NCBI GenBank assembly: GCA_900290305.1
Contig: OMOG01000101.1
Span: 1-47,307 of the forward strand
DNA length: 47,307 bases
Reading direction: 5' to 3'
DNA from: Candidatus Sulfopaludibacter sp. SbA4
Lineage (GTDB): Bacteria > Acidobacteriota > Terriglobia > Bryobacterales > Bryobacteraceae
In this document: positions 14,837 through 29,519 of the stretch, in pieces
Numbering within the stretch: the first letter of the stretch is position 1
Layout of the letters: each line of letters starts with the position of its first letter
The notes under the pieces: model-generated
Told to the model about the DNA's origin: nothing
What the model saw: the letters and a program-made list of their open reading frames with translations, nothing else
The model's database searches: none
Translations under genes and position numbers: made by a program

Positions 14837-17503
14837 CTACTCCTGCCGCAGCACCTCGACCGGCTCGATGGACGCCGCGCGGCGCGCCGGCAGAAAGGCG
14901 GCCGCAAGGCCGATCGCGAGTAGCGCCCCGGCAGTCGCCAGGTACGCGAAAGGGTCCGCGGGCTTTACGCCGAAGAGCACTTTTTCGACCGTGCCCGCGG
15001 CCACCAACGCTGCCGGCAGCCCGATTGCCAGGCCGGCCGCAACCAGCAGCAACGGGTCGCCCAGCATCATCCACAGCACCTTACCGCGCCGCGCCCCCAG
15101 CGCGATGCGGATCCCGATCTCGCGCGCCCGCTGCGCCATCCCGTAGGCCACCACACCGTACAGCCCGACGGCCGCCAGCAGCAGCGCGAGCCCTCCGAAG
15201 AACCCGGCCACGGTGGCGAGAAGCCGATCCTGGTAGATCGAGTCATCCACCCGCTGCGCGATGGTTTTAGGGTCGCCGCCCGTCACGTCCGGACCCAGGC
15301 GCTCCACTTCCGCGCGAATGGCCCGCGCGGTTTCCTCGCGCGGCAGCGCGGAGCGCACCAGGATGGCGCCCCACCACTTCGCCATTCGCGCCGCGGGCAG
15401 GTACACCGTGGGTACGGCCGGCTGCCGCACTCCGCCGTGAGCGACGTCGGGCACTACCCCCACGATGAACGTAGGGTTCAGCGGATCATCCAAAATGCGC
15501 TCCAGGGGATGCCGATCGCCAGCAAGCATTTTGCGCACGAAGGCTTCGTTCACCAGCGCGACCTTGCGCGATTGGGGCGTGTCGCCGCGGTCGAACTCCC
15601 GGCCGGCAATGGGCGCGGCGCCCAGAGCTTCGAAGTAGCGCGGTGCGACGTTCTGAATGCTCACCCATGCCGGCGCCGTGGCCGTTATTTCGGATCCCGG
15701 GATCCGGATGGTGGCCTTGGAAAAGCCGTCCCTATACGGTCCGGGTGCGCCGTAAGTGACCAGCGAAACGCCCGGCAGCGCTTCCAACCGCGCAACCAGG
15801 CGGTCGCGCGCCGCCTGGATCTGGGGCGCCTTCCACGCCTGGGGAAAGTCGAGCGAGAACTCCATGACGGCCGGATTCCGGAATCCCAGGTTCACCGACC
15901 GCAGCGTTGCCAGGCTGTGGCCGAAGAGGCCGGCCAGCGCTACCAGCGTTACCGAGAAGGCCACCTGCGACACCACCAGCATCTTGCGCAACCCGGATTG
16001 CCGCCCGCTCGACTGCGCGCCTCCCGACTTGATGCAATCCGCCGCATCCACGGAGGTGGAACGCCAGGCCGGCAGCAGCCCGAACAGCACCGCCGACAGC
16101 AGCGAGATTCCCAGCGTGAAGGCCAGCACGAGGGCGTTGGGGACCGCGGGGAACGGCTCCGCCGACTCGGCCGGCAGGAACTGGAGAACGCCGCGCTCAC
16201 CCCAGAAGGCGAACGCCACTCCCAGCAGGCATCCCGCTCCGGCCAGCAGCAGGCTCTCGGTCAATGCCTGGCGCACCAGGCGGCCGCGGCTTGCGCCGAG
16301 CGAAAGCCGGACCGCGACTTCCTTGCGCCGCGCGGCCCCGCGCGCCAGCAGCAGGTTGGCCACGTTGGCGCAGGCGGCCAGCAGCACCAGTCCCACCGCG
16401 GCCATTAACACGCTCAGCGAATGCCCGAACTCGTCGCGGAGCATGGAGAGTCCCCCGGCGCCCGCGCGCACTTCGATCCGCTGATCCATCGCGATCTTCT
16501 TGAAGCCGGCGTTGGGGTGGTTTCCGTAGACGCCGGCGAGGTACTGCTGCAGGAGCACATCCATGGCCGCCTGAACGTGGCGGCGCGAAGCTTCGGGGCG
16601 GCGCCGCGCCATGATCCACAGCCAGTGCCAGCCCGCTTCCATGATCTCGTTCTCGGTCATCATGGCCGGCACCCACAGGTCGGGATGGTGGTCCACTTCC
16701 ACGCCGCGGAATCCGGGCGCGGCGACGCCGATTACGGTCAATGGCTTTCCATCGACGACCAGGGTACGTCCCAGGACTCCCGGGTCGGCGGCGAAGCGGC
16801 GACGCCAGAAATCGTTGCTGAGGACGGCCAACGGATGGGCATGAGGCGTGCGATTATCGGCACCGGTGAACAGCCTGCCGATGGCCGGAGCCACACCCAG
16901 AACCGCGAAATAGTTGCCAGTGACAAACTCGCGCTGGGCCGTCTCCGGATGGTCTCCCGAGGCGGTCCGAAAAGGCGCCTTGTCAACGCCGCTCCGCGCG
17001 ATGACGCCGTTGAAAAGATCGGTCCGCTTAGCGATGTCCAGATAGAGCGGGTAGGAGGAAATGCCAACGCCCCAGGCGCCCGTGCGGAACATGGTCACCA
17101 GTTCCGCGGGCTTGGCCACATGCAGTGTGTCGAGCATCAGGACGTGGAACAGGGAGAAGATGGCGGTGTTGGCGCCGATTCCCAAGGCGAGCGAAAGCAC
17201 GGCGGCCGCCGTAGCGGCCGCCGTAAACCCGGGGTTGCGGCCGAGGCCGCGGAGCGCATAGCGCAGGTCCTTGGCCGTCAACTCGAACCACGGAACGCCG
17301 CGCCGTTCGCGATAGATCTCCTGGGTCTGGGCGACGCCGCCGAATTCCCGGCGCGCGGCCAGGCGGGCGGCAGTGGCATCCATCCCCTGCCGCCGGAACT
17401 CCTCCTCCTGCATGGCCAGGTGGATCTCGATTTCATCGTGCAATTCGCGGTCCAGACGGCGCCCGCGAAAGAGTGCCCAAAGACGCTGCAAGCTGGTACG
17501 CAT
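14837..17503 (-). CDS. ADOP-family (MacB/FtsX-like) ABC transporter permease
   Basis: The 888-residue membrane protein begins with the ADOP N-terminal module (LDRELHDEIEIHLAMQEEEF, GMDATAARLAARREFGG), then LRYALRGLGRNPGFTAAA, a membrane helix (SLALGIGANTAIFS), a MacB-type periplasmic domain, a first FtsX domain (LLAACANVANLLLARGAARRKEVAVRLSLGAS), a second periplasmic domain and a second FtsX domain ending in FLPARRAASIEPVEVLRQE. It is full length for the family. Such permeases are abundant in Acidobacteriota and are nearly always next to a PadR regulator, as here (three bases after the padR stop). Works presumably with a separate ATPase, not encoded here; efflux or mechanotransmission is possible, the substrate unknown. 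Confidence 0.95.
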   Translation of the reverse strand: MRTSLQRLWALFRGRRLDRELHDEIEIHLAMQEEEFRRQGMDATAARLAARREFGGVAQTQEIYRERRGVPWFELTAKDLRYALRGLGRNPGFTAAATAAAVLSLALGIGANTAIFSLFHVLMLDTLHVAKPAELVTMFRTGAWGVGISSYPLYLDIAKRTDLFNGVIARSGVDKAPFRTASGDHPETAQREFVTGNYFAVLGVAPAIGRLFTGADNRTPHAHPLAVLSNDFWRRRFAADPGVLGRTLVVDGKPLTVIGVAAPGFRGVEVDHHPDLWVPAMMTENEIMEAGWHWLWIMARRRPEASRRHVQAAMDVLLQQYLAGVYGNHPNAGFKKIAMDQRIEVRAGAGGLSMLRDEFGHSLSVLMAAVGLVLLAACANVANLLLARGAARRKEVAVRLSLGASRGRLVRQALTESLLLAGAGCLLGVAFAFWGERGVLQFLPAESAEPFPAVPNALVLAFTLGISLLSAVLFGLLPAWRSTSVDAADCIKSGGAQSSGRQSGLRKMLVVSQVAFSVTLVALAGLFGHSLATLRSVNLGFRNPAVMEFSLDFPQAWKAPQIQAARDRLVARLEALPGVSLVTYGAPGPYRDGFSKATIRIPGSEITATAPAWVSIQNVAPRYFEALGAAPIAGREFDRGDTPQSRKVALVNEAFVRKMLAGDRHPLERILDDPLNPTFIVGVVPDVAHGGVRQPAVPTVYLPAARMAKWWGAILVRSALPREETARAIRAEVERLGPDVTGGDPKTIAQRVDDSIYQDRLLATVAGFFGGLALLLAAVGLYGVVAYGMAQRAREIGIRIALGARRGKVLWMMLGDPLLLVAAGLAIGLPAALVAAGTVEKVLFGVKPADPFAYLATAGALLAIGLAAAFLPARRAASIEPVEVLRQE

Positions 17504-18582: not shown

Positions 18583-18886
18583 AAGAGCTTTACGCTCTCT
18601 CTTCCTACGCCCTTCGCGATCTTTTCGAAATTTGGGGCTACATCCGGCAAGACAGTCTCGAGACGGCGGATCGCGTCGAGACCGAGTTGCTGGACAAATG
18701 TGAATCCCTGGCGCGAATGCCGGGCCAGGACATCGTCGGCCCGACTATACCAAGGCGCCAGTCTTATTCTTCCCGGTCTATTCCTATCTGATCGCTTACC
18801 GCCCGGGAACCCGTCCATTGCAGATACTCGCCATCGTACATGGGGCGCGCAACGTGCGGAAGGTTCTCAGGCAGCGAGACCTCTAG
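18579..18886 (+). pseudogene. parE: ParE-like toxin, single-base frameshift
   Basis: The first frame reads MKELYALSSYALRDLFEIW and continues to ARMPGQ; one base appears lost in the G run near 18724-18729, and the third frame then gives GHRRPDYTKAP, VLFFPVYSYLIAYRP, LQILAIVHGARNVRKVL and a TAG at 18884-18886. Together these make a normal ParE/RelE-superfamily protein of about 102 residues (family targets are gyrase for ParE or ribosomal mRNA for RelE). As written, the product stops at 18791 with an altered C terminus, losing the VHGAR motif that the fold needs, so it should be inactive. A consensus error of one G would restore it. Confidence 0.8.
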
Positions 18887-19104
18887 CATCGCTCATGCAA
18901 TTCGTCTCGCGTCCAGGTCACCTTGCCGGCGGTGCCCCGATCGGGTGCGTTGCGGATTCTCGCCAGAAATCGACGCCTGGCCACGGCGATCTGTTCTGTG
19001 TTCTTGTGAGGCCTCACGTATCCATTGTAAACTCGCCCTGCCGACCCCTGCCGCAACTCGCTTTCCACCACGGGGTTTGCAACATATTAAGATATCGGTT
19101 ACCC
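18887..19104. other. Gap before the giant surface-protein gene
   Basis: No gene supported. A 62-residue minus-strand frame (GRVYNGYVRPHKNTEQIAVARRRFLARI) is open here but unrecognised and lacks a ribosome site. The right end holds the promoter-like sequence at 19062-19090. Confidence 0.5.
19062..19090 (+). promoter_or_regulatory. Candidate promoter of the giant surface-protein gene
   Basis: TTTCCA at 19062-19067 and TATTAA at 19085-19090 are separated by 17 bp. The expected transcript start is about eight bases before the GTG at 19105, so the leader would be very short. The region is locally A+T-rich compared with its surroundings. Confidence 0.4.
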
Positions 19105-22100
19105 GTGCGTCTCGATCGGTCCTTTTCTATTCTTCTCCGCGTGTGGCTGCTGGGTGCAGCGGCCTGCGCCCTCCATGGGCAGGTGCTGGTTTCCCTGGGA
19201 GCCGGCACGGGATGCGGCTCGCTCCAGGGCGCCCAGACCTGTACGCTCACCGCCCGCGTCACGGGGGCAGTCAACCAGTCGGTCACCTGGGGCTTCAGTC
19301 CGACGGTGGCCGGGGCGGCGGTCGGAAACGGCAGCGCCCCCGATTCCACCGGTCTATCCACCATTACCTACAAGGCTCCCAATTTCATCACCACGCGCCA
19401 GATCGTTACTGTGACGGCCACCAGCGTGGCGGATCCCACGCAGTTCGCTACCGTCTCCATCACCCTGGTGCCGATCACCATTATTGTGCTGGTGAACCCG
19501 CCTTCGGTGACGCTCGGCAACGGGCAGACGCAGCAGTTCTCGGCCAGCGTAAGCGGCATCAGCCAGACCGGCGTCACCTGGAGTATCAACCCGCAGGTGG
19601 GCGCAATCGATCCTAACAGCGGCATGTACACGGCGCCGTCGCCGATCGCCGCCAGTCAGAAAGTCACCGTCATCGCCACCAGTGTTTTCGATCCCACCAC
19701 CAACGGCACGGCCACCGTCACGCTGCAGCCGATCTCGGTGACCTTGTCTCCGGCGGCGGTGACCTTGAGCGCCAACCAGTCGCAGCAGTTCACCCCCACC
19801 CTCTTGGGTTCCAGCGCCGGGGTTCTCTGGTCCATCAGCCCGCAGGTGGGGAACATCACGAACAGCGGGCTGTACACAGCGCCCTCCAGCATCGCGGCCA
19901 GCTCGAAGGTCACGGTGACCGCGACCAGCGTCGACGACCCGACCAAATCGGGCACGGCGGTGGTGACCCTCCAGCCAGCGCCGGCGATCACCGTGGCGGT
20001 CTCTCCGGCCAGCGTGACTTTGACCAACAGCCAGACGCAGCAGTTTACCGCCGCCTTACAGAACAACATCGCCGGAGTCACCTGGTCCATCAACCCGCAG
20101 TTGGGGGCGATCGACAACACCGGCCTCTACACCGCCCCGGCAACCATCACTTCGAGCAACTCGAAAGTCACGGTGACGGCGACCAGCATAGACGACCCCA
20201 CCAAGTCGGGCAGCGCATCCATCACATTGCAGGCCGCTCCAGCGGCTTCCGTGACGGTGACTCCGGCTACTGTCACGCTGAGTAACAACCAGACGCAACA
20301 GTTCTCCGCCACCGTGCAGAACTCCACCGCGGGAGTGACCTGGTCCATCAATCCGCAGATCGGAACTATCGACCCGACGGGTTTCTACACCGCGCCGGGA
20401 TTGATCTCCGGAACGCAAAAGGTCACCGTGACCGCCACGAGCATCTCGGATGCTTCCAAGACCGGCACGGCGACCATCACGCTGGCCACGGCGGTGGACG
20501 TGGGCGTAGGGGCGCCCCCCTCGCTGGTGCAACAGTTCGTGCAGGCCTACTACCGGAATGGGTTCAACTTCCTGGTGACTCTGCCGCCGTTGGGCAACGT
20601 GAAGAAACTGGGGACCACCGGCTATGTGCAGGAGTTCTCCGACCTCAAGACATCCGGCTTGAAAGACGCCCTGGCCACCATTAGTCCCACGGTAAACACC
20701 ACTAATCCCGATACCGGCGAAGTCACTTCCGTAGTTCAACTCTTGGGTAATCTGTACACGAACTACACGTCGGTGGGCGCATCCACTGCCGGTTATCCAC
20801 TCGGGGATACACTGATCTGCCCGGGCTTCGACCCGGCCAACAACTGCGAATACGATTTCTTCGACAAGGGATATGCGCTGTTTGCTTACGCCGTGCCCCT
20901 GGCGACGGGGCAGGACTTCGTCGTGCGGCTGGGCTTCTACACGGAGTGGACGGCCACGGGCGGCATCTCGGTGCTGGGGCGTCCGGTGGATGTGGAAACC
21001 GCCATTACCGGCGCAATTATTCCTCCAGCTACCGCAGGCACGACGGCAACCGTACAGACCTTCGCCAGCGGCGCGATCTACACCATCACTTCGGGGCCGA
21101 ACAAGAACAAAGTGTTCAGCGTGCTGGAACCGATCTGGGACCTGTACCAGACCGAGCTCGGGCCTTCCGGGACGCTGGGTCTGCCCACCAGCGAGTTGCT
21201 GGAGGTTTCGAGCGGCGTGTATCGGCAGAGTTTCGAAGGCGGAGCCCTCCAGAATACGACGGGAGGCGGCGGACCCACGGTGCAGTTGCCGGTGGCTTCG
21301 GTAAGTCTGATCGGTGGGCCATCGGGCGGCGCCGTCACGTTGAACCTGGGGCAGACCCTTCCGGTTACCGCATTGCCGATCTCTACCAGCGGCGGGAACC
21401 TCACGGACCGGCCGGTTTCGTGGAGCACCACGAACGGCAAGGTCGTCTCGATTCAGGCGACGGGGCAGAGCGCGGTGCTCACAGCGGTGGGCGGCGGGAC
21501 GGCCAACGTGACTGCGTCCAGCGGAGGCGTGACCAGTCCCAAGCTGACGGTGACGGTGATCGCGCCGTGCTGCCAGATTGGCGATGGCGCTCCATCCTCG
21601 GTGGTGCAGGCCTTCCAGGACGCCATCACCCGCAACAAGCTTTCGATTCAGGTTCCGGCTCCTTCCGTGGCGGTGCGCGTGGGGAACGGCTACGTGCAGA
21701 TGGTGCAGTCGAGCGATCCGAATTCGCCGGGCGCCTACATGCTGGCGCAGGCGGACCAGGCCGGCACGGCGTACATCGTGGGCGGCGCGGTGCTGGCTCG
21801 ATATCAGAGCCTGGGCGGTCCCGCGGGAGCCCTGGGATATCCCATCAGCGACCAGAGCGCCTTGGGAACGCAGCGGTTCGCCGCGAGCGCGGCGCTGGCC
21901 GGCAATCCGGTGCGCCTGGTGACCGGCGGAGTGCTGGCCAAGTGGGCGCTGCTGGGCTACGAGACCGGGGCTCCCGGGCCGCCCATTGCGGAGGCCACGG
22001 GCTTTTCCACCTTCGGCGCCAACTCGGGTTCCAGCCAGACTTTCGGGTTTGGCACGATTTATGCGGCCACGGCAGGCCCGCGCGCCGGACAGAGTTACTA

Positions 22101-24396
22101 CGTGGGCGGCCTCATTCAGATCCGGTACAACGCGGTCGGCGGGGCTGCGGGCAACTATGGCATGCCGGTCAGCGACGAATTCGTGACCGGGAGTCTGCAC
22201 CAGCAGAACTTCGAGGGGGGCAACATCACGTATTCCACCGGCGATACCGCCGCGGTCGACCATCCCGCCGCCAAGGTCCCGGCCGTGATTGTGGCCCCTA
22301 CTTCGATTTCGGCCGGCGGACGCGCGCGCCTGGCGATTTCCGGCTTCCCCAATAACAGCACCATCCGCGTCTCCGTGACCGGCGAGCCCGATTTCCTGGT
22401 GACCACGGCCAACGGCGCCTATGGTTGGGACATGGCCGTTCCGCTGACCGCGCAGAGCGGCACGGTGAGCATCCATGCGGCGGATACCGGCGGCTCCTCC
22501 ACCGCGGACGGTTCGCTGAGCATCAAAGGCTTCGCCAACAACCGTCTGCCCATTGCCAAGGTGCAGGGCGACAATCAGACCGGACTTCCGGGCGCGATGC
22601 TGCCGATCTCGCTGCGCATCGCCCTGTTGGATTCCACCGGCAGCCCGGTGGTAGGCGCAGCGGTGGTCTTTCAGGCTTCGCCAGGAGCGCAGCTTTCCAC
22701 CGGCGCCGCACTGACTAACAGCTCCGGGCAGGCCGAGACGTTCGTGCGTCTGCCGACCTCTGAAGGTGTCACCGCGGTGACCGCCGACGTGCCCTCGATT
22801 GCGCAAGCTCCCGTGACCTTCTACATGCGCGCGGCGGCTGCGAGCCTATCGAACTTCCCCAAGCTGATGCAGGCGGGCGACACTCGCCTGGGCAATGGAG
22901 GCGCCACCATTGCGCAGAAGGGCGCCCTGCTCACGGCGGTGACTTCGATTCTGAAATATCACCAGAACCGCGGCGAACTGTCCTCGCCGTATGGCACGGC
23001 CGATCCCGTGACGCTGAACCAGTTTCTTTTGTCGGATTGCGCCGTGAATCCCCTGCATGGCGCATTGTGCGACGGATTCCTTTCGAATCCCGATTCGGGC
23101 GAGCAGGTCGTGAATCTCTGGCGCGCCGCGGATTTCACCGGCGGAGTGGATGTAACCGTGCAGAGCCCCACTGTCACGGCGGTCGCCGACCTGCTGGCGC
23201 AAGGATATCCCGCGCTGCTTTCGCTGGGCCTCTCGATGAACGGCACCCTGGTGGGCGGCCATTACGTGGTGGCTATGGGGGTGGCAGCCGACGGCTCGAT
23301 CGTCATCCAGGATCCGAGCCCGCTGTTTGCCCGCAGCAATCTGAACGACTACCTCACGGGCTTCAGCGCCGCGGGCGGCACTTGGACCGCGACTCTTCGC
23401 GGCGTGGCGCAGTTTGCGCTGCGCAGCCCCAGCGCCACGCGCTTCATGGTGGCGGCGCTCTCCCAGCCGCCCGCCCTGATGCAGAGCCTGGCGCTGAATG
23501 TGACATCGCCGGCGGGCGCGTGCGGCGTGCCGGTCGACCTGCTCGACGCGGTCGATTCCTCGGGTAACGGCTCCGGCGGACTGACATCGCGAATCCAGGT
23601 TTGCGACGGATTGCAGGCGGCCTATCAAGTGAGTGTCGGGGCCTCCCAGCCGTACCGCGCCTTCGTCACTGACTTGGCCGCCGGCGGTACGTCGGTGGAT
23701 GTCTCGGGTAGTGCCCCCGCCACTTATAAGGCCTCGCGCCCGCAGCTTGCGCTGGATCTGGAGCCGCAGAACGTCGCCTTTACGGCGGACGCGGTGGTCA
23801 ATGCCGCCACGTTCACCAGCGGGATTGCACCGGGCGGGATCTTCTCGATCTTCGGCACCGGTCTTGCCGGCTCCGGCACGGCCACCACGGTGGATTTCGA
23901 TGGCACGGCGGCGACGGTGCTCTCGGCATCGCCATTCCAGATCAATGCGGTGGTGCCGCCGGGGACCGCCCCGGGCACGCACACGCTGGATGTGGCCTCG
24001 GCGTTCGGAAACGCCCAGCAGACGGTGACGGTTTCCCCGGTTGCGCCGGCGATTTTCCTGATCGGCAATCCGCCGGTGGGCGCGGTGGTGAATCAGAGCG
24101 GCACGCTGAACGGACCTTCCGCGCCGCTGCCGCGCGGGCAGGTCCTGATCATTTACGCGACGGGGCTGGGCGCCGTGGTCAAGCAGGGGCAACTCTCCGT
24201 GGCCACTACTCCGGTCACCGTGATGCTGAATGGACAGGAATTGCCCACTGCGTATGCCGGGCTGGCGCCTGGATCGATCGGAGAGTACCAGGTGAATGTC
24301 ACGATTCCAGCGAACACACCTCCCGGCTTGTCGGTGGCGCTGGCGCTCAAGCAGGGCGGCCTGTTGAGTAATACGGTCTCAGTGGCGTTGCAGTAA
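19105..24396 (+). CDS. Giant secreted protein: Ig-like repeats, LGFP-like modules, C39-like domain, TIGR03437 C terminus
   Basis: The 1763-residue product has a signal peptide (RLDRSFSILLRVWLLGAAACALHG). About 30-470: five bacterial Ig-like units of about 90 residues with QQF(S/T), G(V)TWSINPQ(V/I)G, GLYTAP and VTVTATS signatures. About 470-1100: two LGFP-like modules (GYPLGDTL, LGLPTSELLE, GALGYPISDQ, NYGMPVSDE) separated by a further Ig unit. About 1140-1240: more Ig-like sequence. About 1248-1440: a papain-like C39-type domain with GGHYVVAMG and IQDPSP, but KGALLTAVTSIL where an active enzyme has cysteine. About 1564-1763: the Solibacter-type TIGR03437 domain (VVNAATFTSGIAPGGIFSIFGTGL, ATVLSASPFQINAVVPP). 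Likely a surface adhesin or scaffold. GTG at 19105 is the start giving a proper signal peptide; the frame is open earlier. Confidence 0.85.
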   Translation: MRLDRSFSILLRVWLLGAAACALHGQVLVSLGAGTGCGSLQGAQTCTLTARVTGAVNQSVTWGFSPTVAGAAVGNGSAPDSTGLSTITYKAPNFITTRQIVTVTATSVADPTQFATVSITLVPITIIVLVNPPSVTLGNGQTQQFSASVSGISQTGVTWSINPQVGAIDPNSGMYTAPSPIAASQKVTVIATSVFDPTTNGTATVTLQPISVTLSPAAVTLSANQSQQFTPTLLGSSAGVLWSISPQVGNITNSGLYTAPSSIAASSKVTVTATSVDDPTKSGTAVVTLQPAPAITVAVSPASVTLTNSQTQQFTAALQNNIAGVTWSINPQLGAIDNTGLYTAPATITSSNSKVTVTATSIDDPTKSGSASITLQAAPAASVTVTPATVTLSNNQTQQFSATVQNSTAGVTWSINPQIGTIDPTGFYTAPGLISGTQKVTVTATSISDASKTGTATITLATAVDVGVGAPPSLVQQFVQAYYRNGFNFLVTLPPLGNVKKLGTTGYVQEFSDLKTSGLKDALATISPTVNTTNPDTGEVTSVVQLLGNLYTNYTSVGASTAGYPLGDTLICPGFDPANNCEYDFFDKGYALFAYAVPLATGQDFVVRLGFYTEWTATGGISVLGRPVDVETAITGAIIPPATAGTTATVQTFASGAIYTITSGPNKNKVFSVLEPIWDLYQTELGPSGTLGLPTSELLEVSSGVYRQSFEGGALQNTTGGGGPTVQLPVASVSLIGGPSGGAVTLNLGQTLPVTALPISTSGGNLTDRPVSWSTTNGKVVSIQATGQSAVLTAVGGGTANVTASSGGVTSPKLTVTVIAPCCQIGDGAPSSVVQAFQDAITRNKLSIQVPAPSVAVRVGNGYVQMVQSSDPNSPGAYMLAQADQAGTAYIVGGAVLARYQSLGGPAGALGYPISDQSALGTQRFAASAALAGNPVRLVTGGVLAKWALLGYETGAPGPPIAEATGFSTFGANSGSSQTFGFGTIYAATAGPRAGQSYYVGGLIQIRYNAVGGAAGNYGMPVSDEFVTGSLHQQNFEGGNITYSTGDTAAVDHPAAKVPAVIVAPTSISAGGRARLAISGFPNNSTIRVSVTGEPDFLVTTANGAYGWDMAVPLTAQSGTVSIHAADTGGSSTADGSLSIKGFANNRLPIAKVQGDNQTGLPGAMLPISLRIALLDSTGSPVVGAAVVFQASPGAQLSTGAALTNSSGQAETFVRLPTSEGVTAVTADVPSIAQAPVTFYMRAAAASLSNFPKLMQAGDTRLGNGGATIAQKGALLTAVTSILKYHQNRGELSSPYGTADPVTLNQFLLSDCAVNPLHGALCDGFLSNPDSGEQVVNLWRAADFTGGVDVTVQSPTVTAVADLLAQGYPALLSLGLSMNGTLVGGHYVVAMGVAADGSIVIQDPSPLFARSNLNDYLTGFSAAGGTWTATLRGVAQFALRSPSATRFMVAALSQPPALMQSLALNVTSPAGACGVPVDLLDAVDSSGNGSGGLTSRIQVCDGLQAAYQVSVGASQPYRAFVTDLAAGGTSVDVSGSAPATYKASRPQLALDLEPQNVAFTADAVVNAATFTSGIAPGGIFSIFGTGLAGSGTATTVDFDGTAATVLSASPFQINAVVPPGTAPGTHTLDVASAFGNAQQTVTVSPVAPAIFLIGNPPVGAVVNQSGTLNGPSAPLPRGQVLIIYATGLGAVVKQGQLSVATTPVTVMLNGQELPTAYAGLAPGSIGEYQVNVTIPANTPPGLSVALALKQGGLLSNTVSVALQ
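24232..24396 (+). repeat. Left copy of a 165-bp repeat flanking the TIR-STAND island
   Basis: The last 165 bp of the TIGR03437 gene, from GGACAGGAATTGCCCAC to its TAA, recur without indels at 28781-28945. I count 18 mismatches by eye, about 89 percent identity. Sequences beyond both copies are unrelated. Confidence 0.9.
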
Positions 24397-24806
24397 AGAA
24401 AGCTGAGGCTCAGTCCCGCCGAGGTGGCCCTAGCTGCCTGACCAGAGAAGCGCCGATCACCCTGCTAAGACACGGTTTCTCAGTGCCGCCGGTATCCCGC
24501 CATCATTATCGGCGATCGCCGCCGAACCAAAGCTGGGTTGCGGCGCCAGGCGAAGCACATGAAGGACGCCAGCGCCGGTAACAGCCAAGGCCCCCCACTC
24601 ACGCACTTCCTCAACGCATCTCGTCGAGCGACGACGAAAGTGGGCTCTGGCTGACGCCGCTTCGAGTGTAACGGCCGAAAGCCCTCGCCCCAACCTCGAC
24701 AACAACACCGTCAACGCGCGCGTTACTCCGCAGAGAAGGCGAGCAAGCGCCATCCCGAGAATCGGCGGATGAATTCGTACACTCAATTCGCTACAGTAGA
24801 TCATCA
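24397..24806. other. 410-bp gap at the left edge of the TIR-STAND island
   Basis: No gene is supported. A 115-residue minus-strand frame (24457-24804) begins with ATG right before the TIR gene, but its product (LARLLCGVTRALTVLLSRLG, ARAHFRRRSTRCVEEVREWG) is unrecognised and there is no ribosome site. The gap must contain the promoter of the TIR-STAND gene; the A+T-rich stretch at 24770-24806 is the likeliest place, without clear consensus boxes. Confidence 0.5.
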
Positions 24807-26747
24807 GTGAATAAGCCGATTTTCATCAGCTACCGGATCAATGATGCGGCGGGTCACGCCGGGCGGCTCTCGGATGCGCTGAAGTCACGGTTCCCGGGCC
24901 AGGTCTTTCTCGATGCCGATGTCCTGAAGGGTGGCATGCTGTGGGCACCGGAAATCGAAGAGAATGTCCGGAATTGCGATGTCTTCCTGGCGCTAATCGG
25001 CGAGATGTGGCTCAGAGCCCAAGACCCCGACTCCGGAATGCGCCGGCTTGATCAGCCCGAAGACTGGGTCCGCCGTGAGATCGAGATTGCCTTGGCCAGG
25101 AATCCGCGACCTCTCATCGTGCCCGTCCTGGTCGGCGGCGGTGCCCTTCCCAAAGCCGCACACCTTCCAGCCAGTATTGCCCAACTCCCTGACTTTCAGC
25201 ACCAAACCATCGACCCTTCCGACTACGAGCACGGGATTGAACGCCTCGCCGAACGGTTTCCAAGACACCTCCAGCCGATAACGCGCTCCGTCCTTACTCT
25301 GGAAGGCTCGCCCGCAGAAGCCCGGGGTGAAACTGATCGGGAAAGCACACGGGGTCGAGAGCTGCGACTGGGCGCAATGCTCGTAGATCATCGGAGCTTC
25401 CTTCACAATCGCCTCGACAGCTTTGTCGGCCGTGCAAGCGAATTAGCCAGCCTCACTTCCTTGATCCAAACCAATCGGTTAACCGGCGGCTACATCACAA
25501 TTACTGGCGAAGCGGGCCAAGGGAAGAGTAGCATCATCGCCAAACTCATCGATACGTTCGCCCCTGAAACACCCATTGTACACGTCATACCCTTCAACCC
25601 GGGCCCAGACCACCAGATTATCCTGCTCAGAGATATCCTGGCGCAACTGCTTCTCAAGCACGATCTTCCCGACATCTATGTCGCGAGCGAGACTCGTCCA
25701 ATTTTGCGTCACTCTTTTTCAAAGGTCCTTCAGGAGATAGTCAGCCACTCCGGCAGAGAGACGATTTTTATCGACGGCCTGGATCAAATTCAGGAGGACT
25801 TGACCGGTGAACGCGACCTGACGTTTCTTCCGCGCACCATTCCTCCCGGCATAGTATGTGTGATCGGGACCAGGCCAAATGATACGCTGAGGCCGCTCGA
25901 ACTGCTCACGCCGCATCAAGAATACAAGCTACCGGTTCTGGGCGAAGGGGACTTTACCCTCATTCTGCAGCGTCGAGGGGTCGCGCTGCCTGCGGACCTT
26001 ATGCACAAGCTCTACCTTGGATTGCAGGCTCACGCTCTATACTTGGATCTGGCGGCCAAGGAACTTGCCTTCGCTGCTAACAGCGATCCGGCGGCCCTAT
26101 TCTCTCGGTTGACGCCTAACCCTGAAAGCGTGTTTTCGCTTTCTATTGACCGTCTGAAGCTTACAAGAGACCGGTGGCAGCACATACTTAAACCGATCCT
26201 CGGAGTGCTGCTGGTAGCTCAGGAAGCGATTAGCGAACATGCGCTCCGGATCCTTCTCCGAGCAGAGGGAGACGATGTACGCGAAGGCTTGCTAAAACTA
26301 GGCGGCCTGGTAAGCCACGACTCACGTGGTTACTATCAGCTCTTTCATCTAAAGTTCTATGACTACCTTCGATCAGCCAAGCATGAATACGATGCGCGTA
26401 GCGTGTTCGACCCGGACGATGAGATCAATTGGCACCGCCGGGTTGCTGAATGGTGTGCACCATCGGCACTCCATTCCATTGACCGATCCGATGAACCCGC
26501 CGGCGACAGCAAGGAGCAGGAAAGGCGGTCCTACGCTCTGGACCACCTGGTGGCGCATCTGTATCACGCAAACGAGTGGACCCTGCTATTCGGCTGCCTT
26601 GACAGCGATGAGTACCGTCGCGCAAAGCTTCAGCACGATCCGTCAACAAGAGGTTATGCTCGCGACCTCGAGTTTGGTTGCCGCGCGCTCGTCAGCAAAT
26701 TGTATTCTATCGACGAACGTATTGCATTGACTGCTAAGCTGTGGTGA
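24807..26747 (+). CDS. TIR-STAND NTPase (NLR-like), probably the 5' part of a longer gene
   Basis: Residues 1-155 form a TIR domain (PIFISYRIND, VFLDADVLKGG, CDVFLALIGEMWL, DWVRREIEIAL), with E91 in the position of the NAD-cleaving glutamate. Residues about 200-500 form a STAND-type NTPase: FVGRASELASL, P-loop GEAGQGKSS (234-242), Walker B TIFIDGLDQI (319-328), GTRP (354-357) and a winged-helix region to FHLKFYDYL. The last 130 residues begin a helical region. TIR-STAND proteins of bacteria sense phage products and then deplete NAD; that role is inferred here. GTG start at 24807. The frame stops at a lone TGA (26745-26747), and the same frame continues to 28751 with matching helical repeats. 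G+C is lower than in neighbours. Confidence 0.9.
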   Translation: MNKPIFISYRINDAAGHAGRLSDALKSRFPGQVFLDADVLKGGMLWAPEIEENVRNCDVFLALIGEMWLRAQDPDSGMRRLDQPEDWVRREIEIALARNPRPLIVPVLVGGGALPKAAHLPASIAQLPDFQHQTIDPSDYEHGIERLAERFPRHLQPITRSVLTLEGSPAEARGETDRESTRGRELRLGAMLVDHRSFLHNRLDSFVGRASELASLTSLIQTNRLTGGYITITGEAGQGKSSIIAKLIDTFAPETPIVHVIPFNPGPDHQIILLRDILAQLLLKHDLPDIYVASETRPILRHSFSKVLQEIVSHSGRETIFIDGLDQIQEDLTGERDLTFLPRTIPPGIVCVIGTRPNDTLRPLELLTPHQEYKLPVLGEGDFTLILQRRGVALPADLMHKLYLGLQAHALYLDLAAKELAFAANSDPAALFSRLTPNPESVFSLSIDRLKLTRDRWQHILKPILGVLLVAQEAISEHALRILLRAEGDDVREGLLKLGGLVSHDSRGYYQLFHLKFYDYLRSAKHEYDARSVFDPDDEINWHRRVAEWCAPSALHSIDRSDEPAGDSKEQERRSYALDHLVAHLYHANEWTLLFGCLDSDEYRRAKLQHDPSTRGYARDLEFGCRALVSKLYSIDERIALTAKLW

Positions 26748-26780
26748 TACTCGTTAAGACGGATCACGCTGGCCAGTAAA

Positions 26781-28751
26781 GTGAAGGAATATCCCGAGCA
26801 ACTGTTTACTCTCTTAGTGCTTCGCGGGCGCCACAAGGATGCTATAGAGTTGATCGAAGGCTTGCCCGGTCCGGAAGCGCAATCACGCGCACTTCATCGA
26901 ATTGGACAGGCGCTGGCATATGGCCGTGTGCATCGCGATGAGATATTACCACTCTTGCTTCGCTCGCGAGATCTAGCTCTGCAGATCCGCGACCCTTGGC
27001 GACAGTCTGAAGCCCTCCTTTCGATCGTTGGAGCCCTAGCTGCTGACAAATGCTGGGATGATGCCGTTAAAGTATCGTATGAAATAGGATATTACAAGGA
27101 TCGGTTGGCGGGGCTAGGTAAAACCCTGGATGCTCTGGCATGCGCGGGCGAGAACAGCCGGTTCAGCGATCTCCTCGCTGGAGCCAGCCGCCTGGCTAAA
27201 CTGACGGGCCTGCCTTGGCTTGCCGAACCATCTTATAGGCGAATGGAGGATTTGCTTGCCAACCCGGCGCGCGGATTGAGTGTCCTCTCTTGTATTAATG
27301 CCGATTCCGACGACAGTGTAATCGCCAAGGCGCTAATCAGCACCGCCCCTGAACTTGTCTTGGATTTATGGTCCGGCCGGCTGAGTAGCCCGTGTCCTGG
27401 GACGTGGTTCGACGTTTACGCATGTGTTGCCAAAGTTATCCTAGAGCAGCGGAGTCCGCTCGCGAGGCGCGTCTCTCAAGACCTTTTGTTCCTGGCGAAG
27501 AACAATATGAGGGGTGACACAATTCAGCTCGCACTCCTCCTCAGCGAGGCAGGGCTGAACTCTGAGGCTGCAGCAACGCTTTCAGCCTCGCTTACGAATA
27601 CGCTCTTTGCGAGCGATTCCTTGGAGCGGGCTGAGGCCTTGGTGTTGCTTGGTGAAGATATTGCGGACTTGACGAAGGGGTCGACCGCGGCCAATCGGAA
27701 CACTGACGTCCTCGATGCGGCTCTGGAAGTCGCACGTACGGTGGAATCGCAGCCGCAGAGGACCGCCATGCTGCAAAGAATAGCCGATGGATTTGTGAGA
27801 TTGGGAAATGCAGCGAGGGGAGCGCTGGTTTATATCGAAGCTGGTGGGGGGCCGCTAGTGGTTTATGAAGAGGTTGGGCTGCACGCCCGAGTTGAGGAAC
27901 TCGTCAAAGAGGGAGATCGCCTGGCGGTGTTGGCTTTGAAATTGTCGGGTCAATACTTTAAAGAGACAGTTGAGGCGAGGGACTGGAGTGAAGCCGTCAG
28001 ATTGATTGAGGACGTGGAAACGCCGCCGAGAGAGCTCGGAGAGATTGACGGCCTCATCCAGAAGCGGATAGAGGGGCGGTTGTCGGGGTCTGAACGTGAA
28101 CGTTTACCGAAGTTAAGTAAGGTTAAAGACAGGTACAAGGAGAGCGTTGATCTACGTGCCGAGAGAACGGCATTGTTGATTCGAGGAATGTTCGCCGCAG
28201 GCGAAAGACGGCGGGCCAAAGAGTTTTTCCCGAGGGCGCTGGCGTATGCCACTGGTGTGCGGTCTGCGGCGTTGAAGGTAGGACTGCTCGAGAAGGTGTT
28301 TGAGGCTGCGGTTGAAACGGGCGATGAAGGAGTCGTTCTTAAGGCGAGTTCAGAAATGATCGTAATATCGAAAGAGGAGTCCAAGCCTTATTCGGAGCAT
28401 GCAGCAGTTGTTGAAAGACTTGTCAAGGGCTTGATCCACATTGGACAAGCACCTTTCGCAAGTAGGCTCATAGAGACGGAGTTGATTGATGGTCGAGCGC
28501 AGGAGGGTAGCGAGGCGCAGCGCGCCGCGGTTTTGAGAATGCTCGCAAGATCGCTCTGGCGTTTGGGCGATATGGGCCGGTACCTCGATCTGCTGCATCG
28601 TCATTGGCCGGCGGCGGCAAGCCAGAGAGAATTGCTCGCTTTACTGCCACTGGCCAGTACGGTTTTATGCCATGACAGCCCCCAGCGTGCTGATATTATA
28701 GCCTCTTTGGTTTTCGGAGAAGCAGTTCGGCTTGGTGACCCAATCGGCTAA
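26781..28751 (+). CDS. Alpha-helical repeat protein, probable C-terminal sensor part of the TIR-STAND protein
   Basis: The 656-residue frame is built of TPR-like helical pairs (AIELIEGLPGPEAQSRALHRIGQAL, WRQSEALLSIVGALA, LERAEALVLLGEDIADL, QRTAMLQRIADGFVRLG, AAVLRMLARSLWRLGDMGRYLDLL). No catalytic motif is visible. The frame is the same as that of the TIR-STAND gene and is open from the codon after its TGA (YSLRRITLASKVKEYPEQLF...), 11 codons before the GTG at 26781. There is no Shine-Dalgarno before that GTG. In STAND proteins a C-terminal solenoid recognises the trigger, so the two frames most likely make one protein of about 1314 residues, or act as partners. Low G+C for the window, especially after 27.5 kb. 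Confidence 0.75.
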   Translation: MKEYPEQLFTLLVLRGRHKDAIELIEGLPGPEAQSRALHRIGQALAYGRVHRDEILPLLLRSRDLALQIRDPWRQSEALLSIVGALAADKCWDDAVKVSYEIGYYKDRLAGLGKTLDALACAGENSRFSDLLAGASRLAKLTGLPWLAEPSYRRMEDLLANPARGLSVLSCINADSDDSVIAKALISTAPELVLDLWSGRLSSPCPGTWFDVYACVAKVILEQRSPLARRVSQDLLFLAKNNMRGDTIQLALLLSEAGLNSEAAATLSASLTNTLFASDSLERAEALVLLGEDIADLTKGSTAANRNTDVLDAALEVARTVESQPQRTAMLQRIADGFVRLGNAARGALVYIEAGGGPLVVYEEVGLHARVEELVKEGDRLAVLALKLSGQYFKETVEARDWSEAVRLIEDVETPPRELGEIDGLIQKRIEGRLSGSERERLPKLSKVKDRYKESVDLRAERTALLIRGMFAAGERRRAKEFFPRALAYATGVRSAALKVGLLEKVFEAAVETGDEGVVLKASSEMIVISKEESKPYSEHAAVVERLVKGLIHIGQAPFASRLIETELIDGRAQEGSEAQRAAVLRMLARSLWRLGDMGRYLDLLHRHWPAAASQRELLALLPLASTVLCHDSPQRADIIASLVFGEAVRLGDPIG

Positions 28752-28780
28752 CCGGATGACATGGGGTGTGGCCACGCAAC

Positions 28781-28945
28781 GGACAGGAATTGCCCACGGC
28801 GTATGCCGGGATCGCGCATGGATCGATCGGAGAGTACGAGGTGAATGTCACGATTCCGGCCAACACGCCGGCCGGATTGTCGGTGCCTCTGGCGCTCAAG
28901 CAAGGGGGCCAGTTGAGTAATACGGTCTCGGTGGCGCTGCAGTAA
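28781..28945 (+). pseudogene. 3' remnant of a TIGR03437-domain gene
   Basis: Encodes only the last 54 residues of the domain (GQELPTAYAG, GSIGEYEVNVTIP, LSNTVSVALQ) ending in TAA, with no start or upstream domain. It matches the end of the giant gene at 24232-24396 with 18 substitutions, so it comes from a related paralogue rather than a fresh copy. It begins 29 bases after the helical-repeat gene and marks the right border of the island. Confidence 0.9.
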
Positions 28946-29519
28946 CTACCGCCTTCGGGATACTAGCTAGCATCGAACGGGTCGATTCCTCGTCGGGATT
29001 ATCGATGAAATGGTCGTCGCGTGAGACGACCTCGAAGCCGGCATGGCGGTGGAGAAGAACCATCTCGAGAACGTGGAGGTCATCCTCGGAGTGCCCGACG
29101 GTCCCAAGCTGCCGGCCGGCACGCTGGATGGAGTCCTGATGGTGATCGCGTACCACGGGGTCGCCGACTACGAAAAGATGCTGGAACACGTCAAGGCCGC
29201 GCTCAGGGAAGACGGGCGTCTCGTGATTGTGGATATGGCTCCTCACGAAACGCTCACTCGTCCGCGCGCGGATCAAACGAAAAACCACGGCGTAGACACG
29301 GCCCGCAGCGCCGACCGTGCGCGACATCGCCATGTCATAGAAGCCATCGCCGGCTCCGATATCGGCCACCCTGGAGCCTTCCTTCAGCCCGAGGCCGCGG
29401 ATGATCTCGGGGATCTTGAGATCGTGCTCGCGCTTGGCGTCGGCCGGCTCCGGCGCTTGCGCGCGCGCGGCAGGCGCGGCCAGCAGGCACGCGCCTAACA
29501 GCAGAACGACTGACTTCAT
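28896..29519 (-). pseudogene. SAM-dependent methyltransferase with internally inverted segment and lost C terminus
   Basis: Read on the minus strand, codons 1-77 give a signal peptide (MKSVVLLLGACLLAAPAARA) and the start of a class I methyltransferase (IPEIIRGLGLKEGS, RVADIGAGDGFYDMAMSRTVG, GRVYAV). The middle of the enzyme (KNHLENVEVILGVPDGPKLP, LDGVLMVIAYHG, EHVKAALREDGRLVIVDMAP) is on the plus strand at 29049-29288. The minus frame then resumes with AGFEVVSRDDHFIDNPDEEST before unrelated sequence from about 28978, where the TIGR03437 remnant was joined. The ATG overlaps the TGA of the LytTR regulator gene (ATGA), so it was the third gene of that operon. The antisense middle leaves the 207-codon frame open, but the product cannot be an enzyme. 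Confidence 0.85.
29049..29288 (+). other. Inverted 240-bp segment inside the methyltransferase gene
   Basis: The segment reads as methyltransferase only on the plus strand, opposite to both flanks. It is bounded by GTGG (29049-29052) and CCAC (29285-29288). Flipping it between these words restores one frame at both junctions (GRVYAV-EKNHLENV and QTKNH-RHAGFEVV). About a dozen residues usually found at each junction in this family are absent, as far as I recall the family. Confidence 0.8.

What the first reader, a model, noticed from the sequence alone, without database searches (positions are those of the whole stretch)
24807..28751. TIR-STAND-solenoid immune-type gene split by one in-frame TGA
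The TIR-STAND frame ends at TGA 26745-26747 (context LW-TGA-YSLRR). The same frame is then open for another 667 codons of helical repeats, with no ribosome site before the first GTG at 26781. A CGA-to-TGA change would explain this, since LWRYSL-like sequence is what I recall at that place in related proteins. Options are a recent nonsense mutation, regulated readthrough, a consensus error, or a real two-protein system in which a TIR-STAND effector is separated from its sensor. The last would be an unusual split NLR.
Basis: partly seen in the sequence, partly recalled or inferred. Interest (0 to 1): 0.72.

Follow-up and report, generated by a model that had tools for sequence, protein, structure and literature searches.

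The report
TIR-STAND-TPR immune gene with nonsense codon
A bacterial immune-receptor gene, belonging to a family known mostly from Chloroflexota and probably acquired by horizontal transfer, is interrupted by a single stop codon that none of its 47 recovered relatives has, so it is most likely an ordinary recently broken gene and not a new two-protein immune system.

Summary
ORF 24807-26747 (646 aa; TIR + STAND NTPase) ends at TGA 26745-26747, and the same frame stays open for 667 codons to TAA 28749-28751 (chance about 2e-13). Relatives settle the main question. 47 distinct homologous segments, nearly all from Chloroflexota, align straight through the TGA. None has a stop there: R 21, K 13, G 5, Q 3, S 2, A 2, C 1. 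The closest are single ORFs (1087-2095 codons) with a swappable N-terminal effector (TIR, caspase, CHAT or none), a STAND core, a helical-repeat array and a conserved C-terminal cap; the window's downstream frame ends in that cap too. In an AlphaFold model the TGA falls inside a helix of the Apaf-1/MalT-like arm, not at a domain border. No bSECIS-like structure, suppressor tRNA or start site supports recoding or re-initiation. Among 153 MacB-type matches in the same assembly, 6 contain in-frame stops, spread over TGA, TAG and TAA. Best reading: one horizontally acquired TIR-STAND-TPR receptor gene with one recent nonsense lesion, or less likely a consensus error; the split-NLR reading is not supported. 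Reads at 26745-26747 would decide between lesion and error. Ordinary; low interest.

The parts
24807..26747 (+). Upstream ORF, 646 aa: TIR + STAND NTPase + winged-helix/helical-arm region, ending in the TGA
   Evidence: homology to single-ORF relatives
24819..25244 (+). TIR_2 domain (residues 5-146); retains the WVRREIEIAL segment where the NADase glutamate is expected (own knowledge)
   Evidence: Pfam E 1.9e-11
25422..25931 (+). STAND/NACHT NTPase (residues 206-375) with intact Walker A (25506-25529, GEAGQGKS) and Walker B (25764-25787, IFIDGLDQ)
26709..26774 (+). Predicted 22-residue helix (model residues 441-462) that the TGA (model residue 453) cuts near its middle
   Evidence: AlphaFold model m5e3e23f09886; position
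26745..26747 (+). In-frame TGA; relatives have R, K, G, Q, S, A or C here, never a stop
26748..28751 (+). Downstream open frame (667 codons + TAA): rest of the helical arm and alpha-solenoid sensor array
28509..28667 (+). Conserved C-terminal cap of the family (residues 1235-1287), aligned to the C-terminus of the 2095-codon Ktedonobacter relative L048
   Evidence: blastp E 8e-4, 38% identity; ends compared
24229..24396 (+). 3' end of the upstream Big_2/TIG surface-type gene (18700-24396), first copy of the flanking repeat
   Evidence: 88.7% over 168 bp
28778..28945 (+). Orphan second copy of that gene end just after the TIR-STAND gene; the two copies bracket the lower-GC cassette 24397-28777
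   Evidence: GC drop

Best explanation
One gene, 24807-28751, encodes a single TIR-STAND-helical-repeat immune receptor of about 1314 residues (an NLR-like protein). It carries one recent point nonsense codon at position 647. Shown: the relatives are one protein across this site, the downstream half is intact to the family's natural C-terminus, and the motifs before the stop are intact. Inferred: in normal members the C-terminal solenoid senses an invader, the STAND NTPase oligomerises and the N-terminal effector (here TIR, probably NAD+ consuming) kills or arrests the cell. Also inferred: the present allele makes at most a 646-aa sensor-less TIR-STAND fragment that lacks the end of the helical arm and all repeats and no longer works as a regulated receptor. 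The gene reads as an import from a Chloroflexota-type family, set beside a Big/TIG gene.
For: 47 distinct homologous segments cross the site, none with a stop. The relatives are single ORFs of 1087-2095 codons, e.g. L024 1664, L025 1087, L048 2095, Haur_5268 1958 aa. A scan of 400 genomes of the Ktedonobacter relative's phylum gave 46 listed matches, stops_inside 'none' for all. Homology runs through the TGA (LW*YSLRRITL / LWRYSLLRSTL) and resumes at the C-terminal cap. The TGA splits a predicted helix. Recency: a neutral 2001-bp stretch would stay free of new stops and frameshifts with probability only about 0.05 by 2% and 0.01 by 3% divergence (assuming 5% indels). The window misses 7 of 62 columns invariant in the other rows, within the range of the relatives (0-9), so there is no sign of long decay. 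Base rate: 6 of 153 MacB-type matches in the same assembly carry in-frame stops, TGA 3, TAG 3, TAA 2. Two relatives elsewhere are broken by frameshifts (L034, L043). In Avs5, deletion of C-terminal helices abolished immunity (PMC12931631).
Against: No reads were available, so a mixed-strain or consensus error is not excluded. No other allele of this gene was found, so the event is not shown by intraspecific comparison. The middle of the repeat array (about residues 760-1235) has no detectable sequence homologue, so its integrity rests on the open frame and the matching cap. The window row has a long branch (0.85).
Confidence: 0.73

Rival explanations
1. Consensus or strain-mixture error in the metagenome assembly: the real gene has a sense codon and is intact.
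For: The source looks like a MAG: 790 contigs, 84% complete, 4% contaminated; stops and apparently split genes also turn up among its MacB-type paralogues.
Against: A single clean substitution with no ambiguous base in the window; substitution errors are rare in well-covered short-read consensus (own knowledge).
Confidence: 0.17
2. A functional two-protein system: a TIR-STAND effector and a separately translated solenoid sensor (split NLR).
For: Both halves are open and uninterrupted; other bacterial STAND systems do split effector and core through adaptor domains (PMC7159879, PMC8195603).
Against: All 47 rows are continuous; the break lies inside a helix, not between domains; no ribosome-binding site before GTG 26781; relatives that vary their architecture swap the N-terminal effector, none is split here.
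Confidence: 0.04
3. Programmed readthrough or recoding of the TGA (selenocysteine or suppression).
For: The assembly encodes tRNA-Sec; one relative has Cys at this column (L083); the column is tolerant, so any inserted residue might be accepted.
Against: No stable stem-loop after the TGA (z +0.66 and +0.64); only 1 Cys against 34 R/K in a variable column; the only UCA-anticodon tRNA found is tRNA-Sec; UGA followed by U is a strong stop context in E. coli (own knowledge); no conserved stop in any relative.
Confidence: 0.04
4. The truncation itself is selected: a sensor-less TIR-STAND acting as an autoactive or dominant form.
For: The 646-aa product keeps TIR, NTPase and most of the Apaf-1-like arm (Z 24.3 over model 1-464); Apaf-1 without its WD40 sensor is known to be constitutively active (own knowledge).
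Against: An autoactive NAD+-consuming protein should be toxic; sensor deletions in Avs5 abolish function; no parallel truncation in relatives.
Confidence: 0.02

Closest known systems
CHAT-STAND-TPR proteins Haur_5268 and Haur_5145 of Herpetosiphon aurantiacus plasmids pHAU02/pHAU01
   Same: Homologous STAND core and helical arm, 35-38% identity through the TGA site; C-terminal repeat array
   Different: CHAT effector in place of TIR (Haur_5268); lysine at the TGA column; uninterrupted
Caspase-STAND-repeat proteins of Chloroheliaceae, Ktedonobacteria and Oscillochloridaceae (L024, L026, L048)
   Same: Closest or near-closest cores (42-45% identity); same C-terminal cap in L048 and L024
   Different: Caspase (Peptidase_C14) effector; arginine at the column; uninterrupted
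TIR-STAND relatives L025 (Ktedonobacteria brp13) and L038 (Thermogemmatispora)
   Same: TIR_2 effector on the same STAND core
   Different: Uninterrupted ORFs of 1087 and 1318 codons; R and A at the column
PADLOC STAND_TPR (PDLC01173)
   Same: STAND NTPase match, residues 171-366, E 2.3e-7; L024 matches at 7e-29
   Different: That model has an Xre-HTH N-terminus; only part of the profile is matched
Avs/AVAST STAND defence proteins (Avs3, Avs5)
   Same: Effector-STAND-helical sensor plan; Avs3 is the top Foldseek row by E-value
   Different: No significant Avs profile match (Avs1b E 0.048 only); low TM-scores (0.18/0.11)
Apaf-1, MalT and PH0952 (6mfv)
   Same: Fold of NTPase plus winged-helix and helical arm, Z 23-24.5
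   Different: Eukaryotic apoptosis, bacterial transcription and archaeal proteins with other outputs; 15-16% identity

Membership tests
STAND / NLR-like receptor (gene as a whole) | P-loop NTPase with Walker A and B | tested here: met
   AAA_16/NACHT over cut-off; GEAGQGKS and IFIDGLDQ conserved with relatives
STAND / NLR-like receptor (gene as a whole) | N-terminal effector domain | tested here: met
   TIR_2 5-146, E 1.9e-11
STAND / NLR-like receptor (gene as a whole) | Winged-helix/helical arm after the NTPase | tested here: met
   Apaf-1 and MalT matches over model 1-464, Z 23-24
STAND / NLR-like receptor (gene as a whole) | C-terminal repeat sensor on the same polypeptide | tested here: not met
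   Present in frame and helical but separated from the rest by TGA 26745-26747; met in relatives. So the gene is a broken member, and its present product is not an intact receptor
Chloroflexota-type STAND-repeat family (relatives found here) | Homology across the STAND core, the arm junction and the C-terminal cap | tested here: met
TIR NADase | NAD+ cleavage activity | not testable with these tools
   Only the domain match and the expected glutamate segment were seen
Avs/AVAST | Match to Avs profiles / recognition of a phage protein | tested here: inconclusive
   Avs1b E 0.048; Foldseek Avs3 E 1.7e-10 with low TM-score
Split effector/sensor two-gene system | Relatives encoded as two genes with a break at this site | tested here: not met
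   0 of 47 rows
Selenoprotein | bSECIS-like stem-loop just after the UGA | tested here: not met
   Fold no better than shuffles, z +0.66 and +0.64
Selenoprotein | Cys in most relatives at the UGA position | tested here: not met
   C in 1 of 47
Selenoprotein | tRNA-Sec in the genome | tested here: met
   C674, 74.6 bits, anticodon UCA

The most novel reading that the evidence does not exclude
The TGA is a regulated switch: the default product is a sensor-less TIR-STAND fragment, and readthrough or re-initiation yields the full receptor or a separate sensor protein, giving a bacterial NLR controlled at translation.
Probability: 0.04. Interest if true: 0.65.

Novelty: new member of a known kind. 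Interest (0 to 1): 0.15.

Why it matters
It settles a tempting false lead: an apparent split NLR is an interrupted single receptor. As a by-product it outlines a mainly Chloroflexota family in which the same STAND core and C-terminal cap carry interchangeable TIR, caspase or CHAT effectors, and shows one member in another phylum, sitting between two copies of a neighbour's gene end. Breakage by nonsense or frameshift in three members fits the general picture that defence genes are gained and lost often.

Tried and rejected
Close relatives of the downstream half alone: none in 100 relatives' genomes, viral contigs or plasmids; the repeat array diverges too fast, so the STAND core had to be used. 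Viral contigs with the core or the alignment: no relatives. PDB by sequence with the single proteins: nothing useful. Selenocysteine: tRNA-Sec present but no stem-loop and the wrong residues in relatives. Suppressor tRNA: none seen among the tRNAs scanned; three Rfam matches gave no ARAGORN gene. Alternative code: in-frame stops among MacB-type paralogues fall on all three stop codons. Phase variation by repeats: no tandem repeat in 24500-29500.

Full report
Observation. The feature is real and the coordinates are exact. GTG 24807 opens a 646-codon ORF that ends at TGA 26745-26747; the same frame then runs 667 codons to TAA 28749-28751. By base composition such a run has probability about 2e-13, while the other + frames hold 35 and 41 stops. 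Pfam gives TIR_2 (5-146), AAA_16 (206-331) and NACHT (230-375) in the first part and nothing significant in the second. There is no ribosome-binding site before GTG 26781.

Relatives. The downstream half alone finds nothing, but the STAND region finds two Herpetosiphon plasmid proteins, 1958 and 1689 aa, that align across the stop: LW*YSLRRITL against LWKYSLLRTSL. An alignment-based scan of one genome for each of 84,980 species gave 32 loci, all from Chloroflexota except one weak Saprospiraceae hit that did not recur in the follow-up tblastn. A 400-genome scan of the Ktedonobacter relative's phylum gave 24 genomes and 46 listed matches, all with stops_inside 'none'. After removing duplicates, 47 rows span the stop column: R 21, K 13, G 5, Q 3, S 2, A 2, C 1, and no stop. 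In 396 genomes of the window's own phylum (not named by the tool) only the window's genome has a match at 1e-30.

One protein. Homology continues past the TGA for roughly 100-140 residues in several relatives and reappears at the C-terminal cap (residues 1235-1287 against 2019-2071 of the 2095-codon Ktedonobacter ORF, E 8e-4). So the downstream frame is intact to the family's natural end. In the AlphaFold model (TGA read through as Trp for folding only; mean pLDDT 72.5, with a poorly predicted stretch in the middle of the solenoid) the TGA residue, 453 in the model, lies inside helix 441-462. Structure comparison places it in the last part of the helical arm: Apaf-1 aligns over model 1-464 (Z 24.3), MalT over 1-460 (Z 23.3), and the STAND-TPR protein PH0952 heads the list (Z 24.5, but 19.6 A rmsd). 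The break is therefore not at a domain border.

Family plan. In the relatives the N-terminal effector is swapped: caspase (L024, L026, L027, L030, L035, L048), CHAT (L022), TIR (L025, L038), or no Pfam match (L032), on the same STAND core. The general design of STAND NTPases with swappable effectors and repeat sensors in multicellular bacteria, Chloroflexi included, is described in PMC7159879 and PMC8195603, and caspase-NACHT proteins of Chloroflexi in PMC3501461. The gene is therefore a new member of a known kind.

Why broken and why recent. If the downstream half had been untranslated for long, stops and frameshifts would have accumulated: the calculated probability of none is 0.22 at 1% neutral divergence, 0.05 at 2% and 0.01 at 3% (assumes indels are 5% of events). 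The part before the stop misses 7 of 62 columns invariant in the other rows, against 0-9 for the relatives. Breakage is not unusual in this setting: 6 of 153 MacB-type matches in the same assembly have in-frame stops (TGA 3, TAG 3, TAA 2), and two relatives elsewhere are frameshifted (L034, L043). The spread over all three stop codons also argues against TGA being read as sense in this genome.

Recoding tests. The assembly does encode tRNA-Sec, so selenocysteine was tested: the RNA after the TGA folds no better than shuffles (z +0.66 and +0.64), and the column is R/K-rich and variable, with Cys in one row. No other UCA-anticodon tRNA was found among those scanned.

Origin. The gene has 53-57% GC over most of its length in surroundings of mostly 63-69%. 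It lies between the end of a Big_2/TIG gene (24229-24396) and an orphan copy of that end (28778-28945; 168 bp, 88.7%), the only two copies in the assembly. Horizontal acquisition is the natural reading; the tree places the window near Chloroheliaceae and Ktedonobacteria members but without starred support.

Mechanism and verdict. Intact members most likely sense an invader protein with the C-terminal solenoid, oligomerise through the STAND NTPase and fire the N-terminal effector (inferred from the family plan; Avs5 needs its C-terminal helices for immunity, PMC12931631). The allele here can make only a sensor-less fragment and is most likely a non-functional, recently broken copy (0.73), or an assembly artefact (0.17). 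Split-NLR and readthrough readings keep about 0.04 each. Raw reads are the decisive missing datum.

Noticed in passing
window 24229-24396 and 28778-28945 (+): 168-bp direct repeat (88.7%) of the 3' end of a Big_2/TIG gene on both sides of the TIR-STAND gene; the second copy is an orphan gene tail. Only these two copies exist in the assembly.
   Followed up: partly
G000:C674:9262-9352 (L106): tRNA-Sec gene (74.6 bits, anticodon UCA), so this genome probably makes selenoproteins.
   Followed up: partly
G000, 153 matches to window 14840-17503 (-): Very large MacB/FtsX-type permease paralogue set; 6 matches carry in-frame stops and several look split by frameshifts.
   Followed up: no
L034 7060-10050; L043 7476-10438: Relatives in Thermogemmatispora tikiterensis and Herpetosiphon aurantiacus are broken by frameshifts.
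   Followed up: partly
window 27600-28600: Strong strand asymmetry (GC skew 0.26-0.37) in the last third of the gene, unlike the rest; the repeat array there has no detectable sequence homologue.
   Followed up: no
Herpetosiphon aurantiacus genome G496 (CP000875.1, CP000876.1, CP000877.1): 15 matches to this STAND family in one genome, on chromosome and plasmids, with different effectors: a lineage expansion.
   Followed up: no
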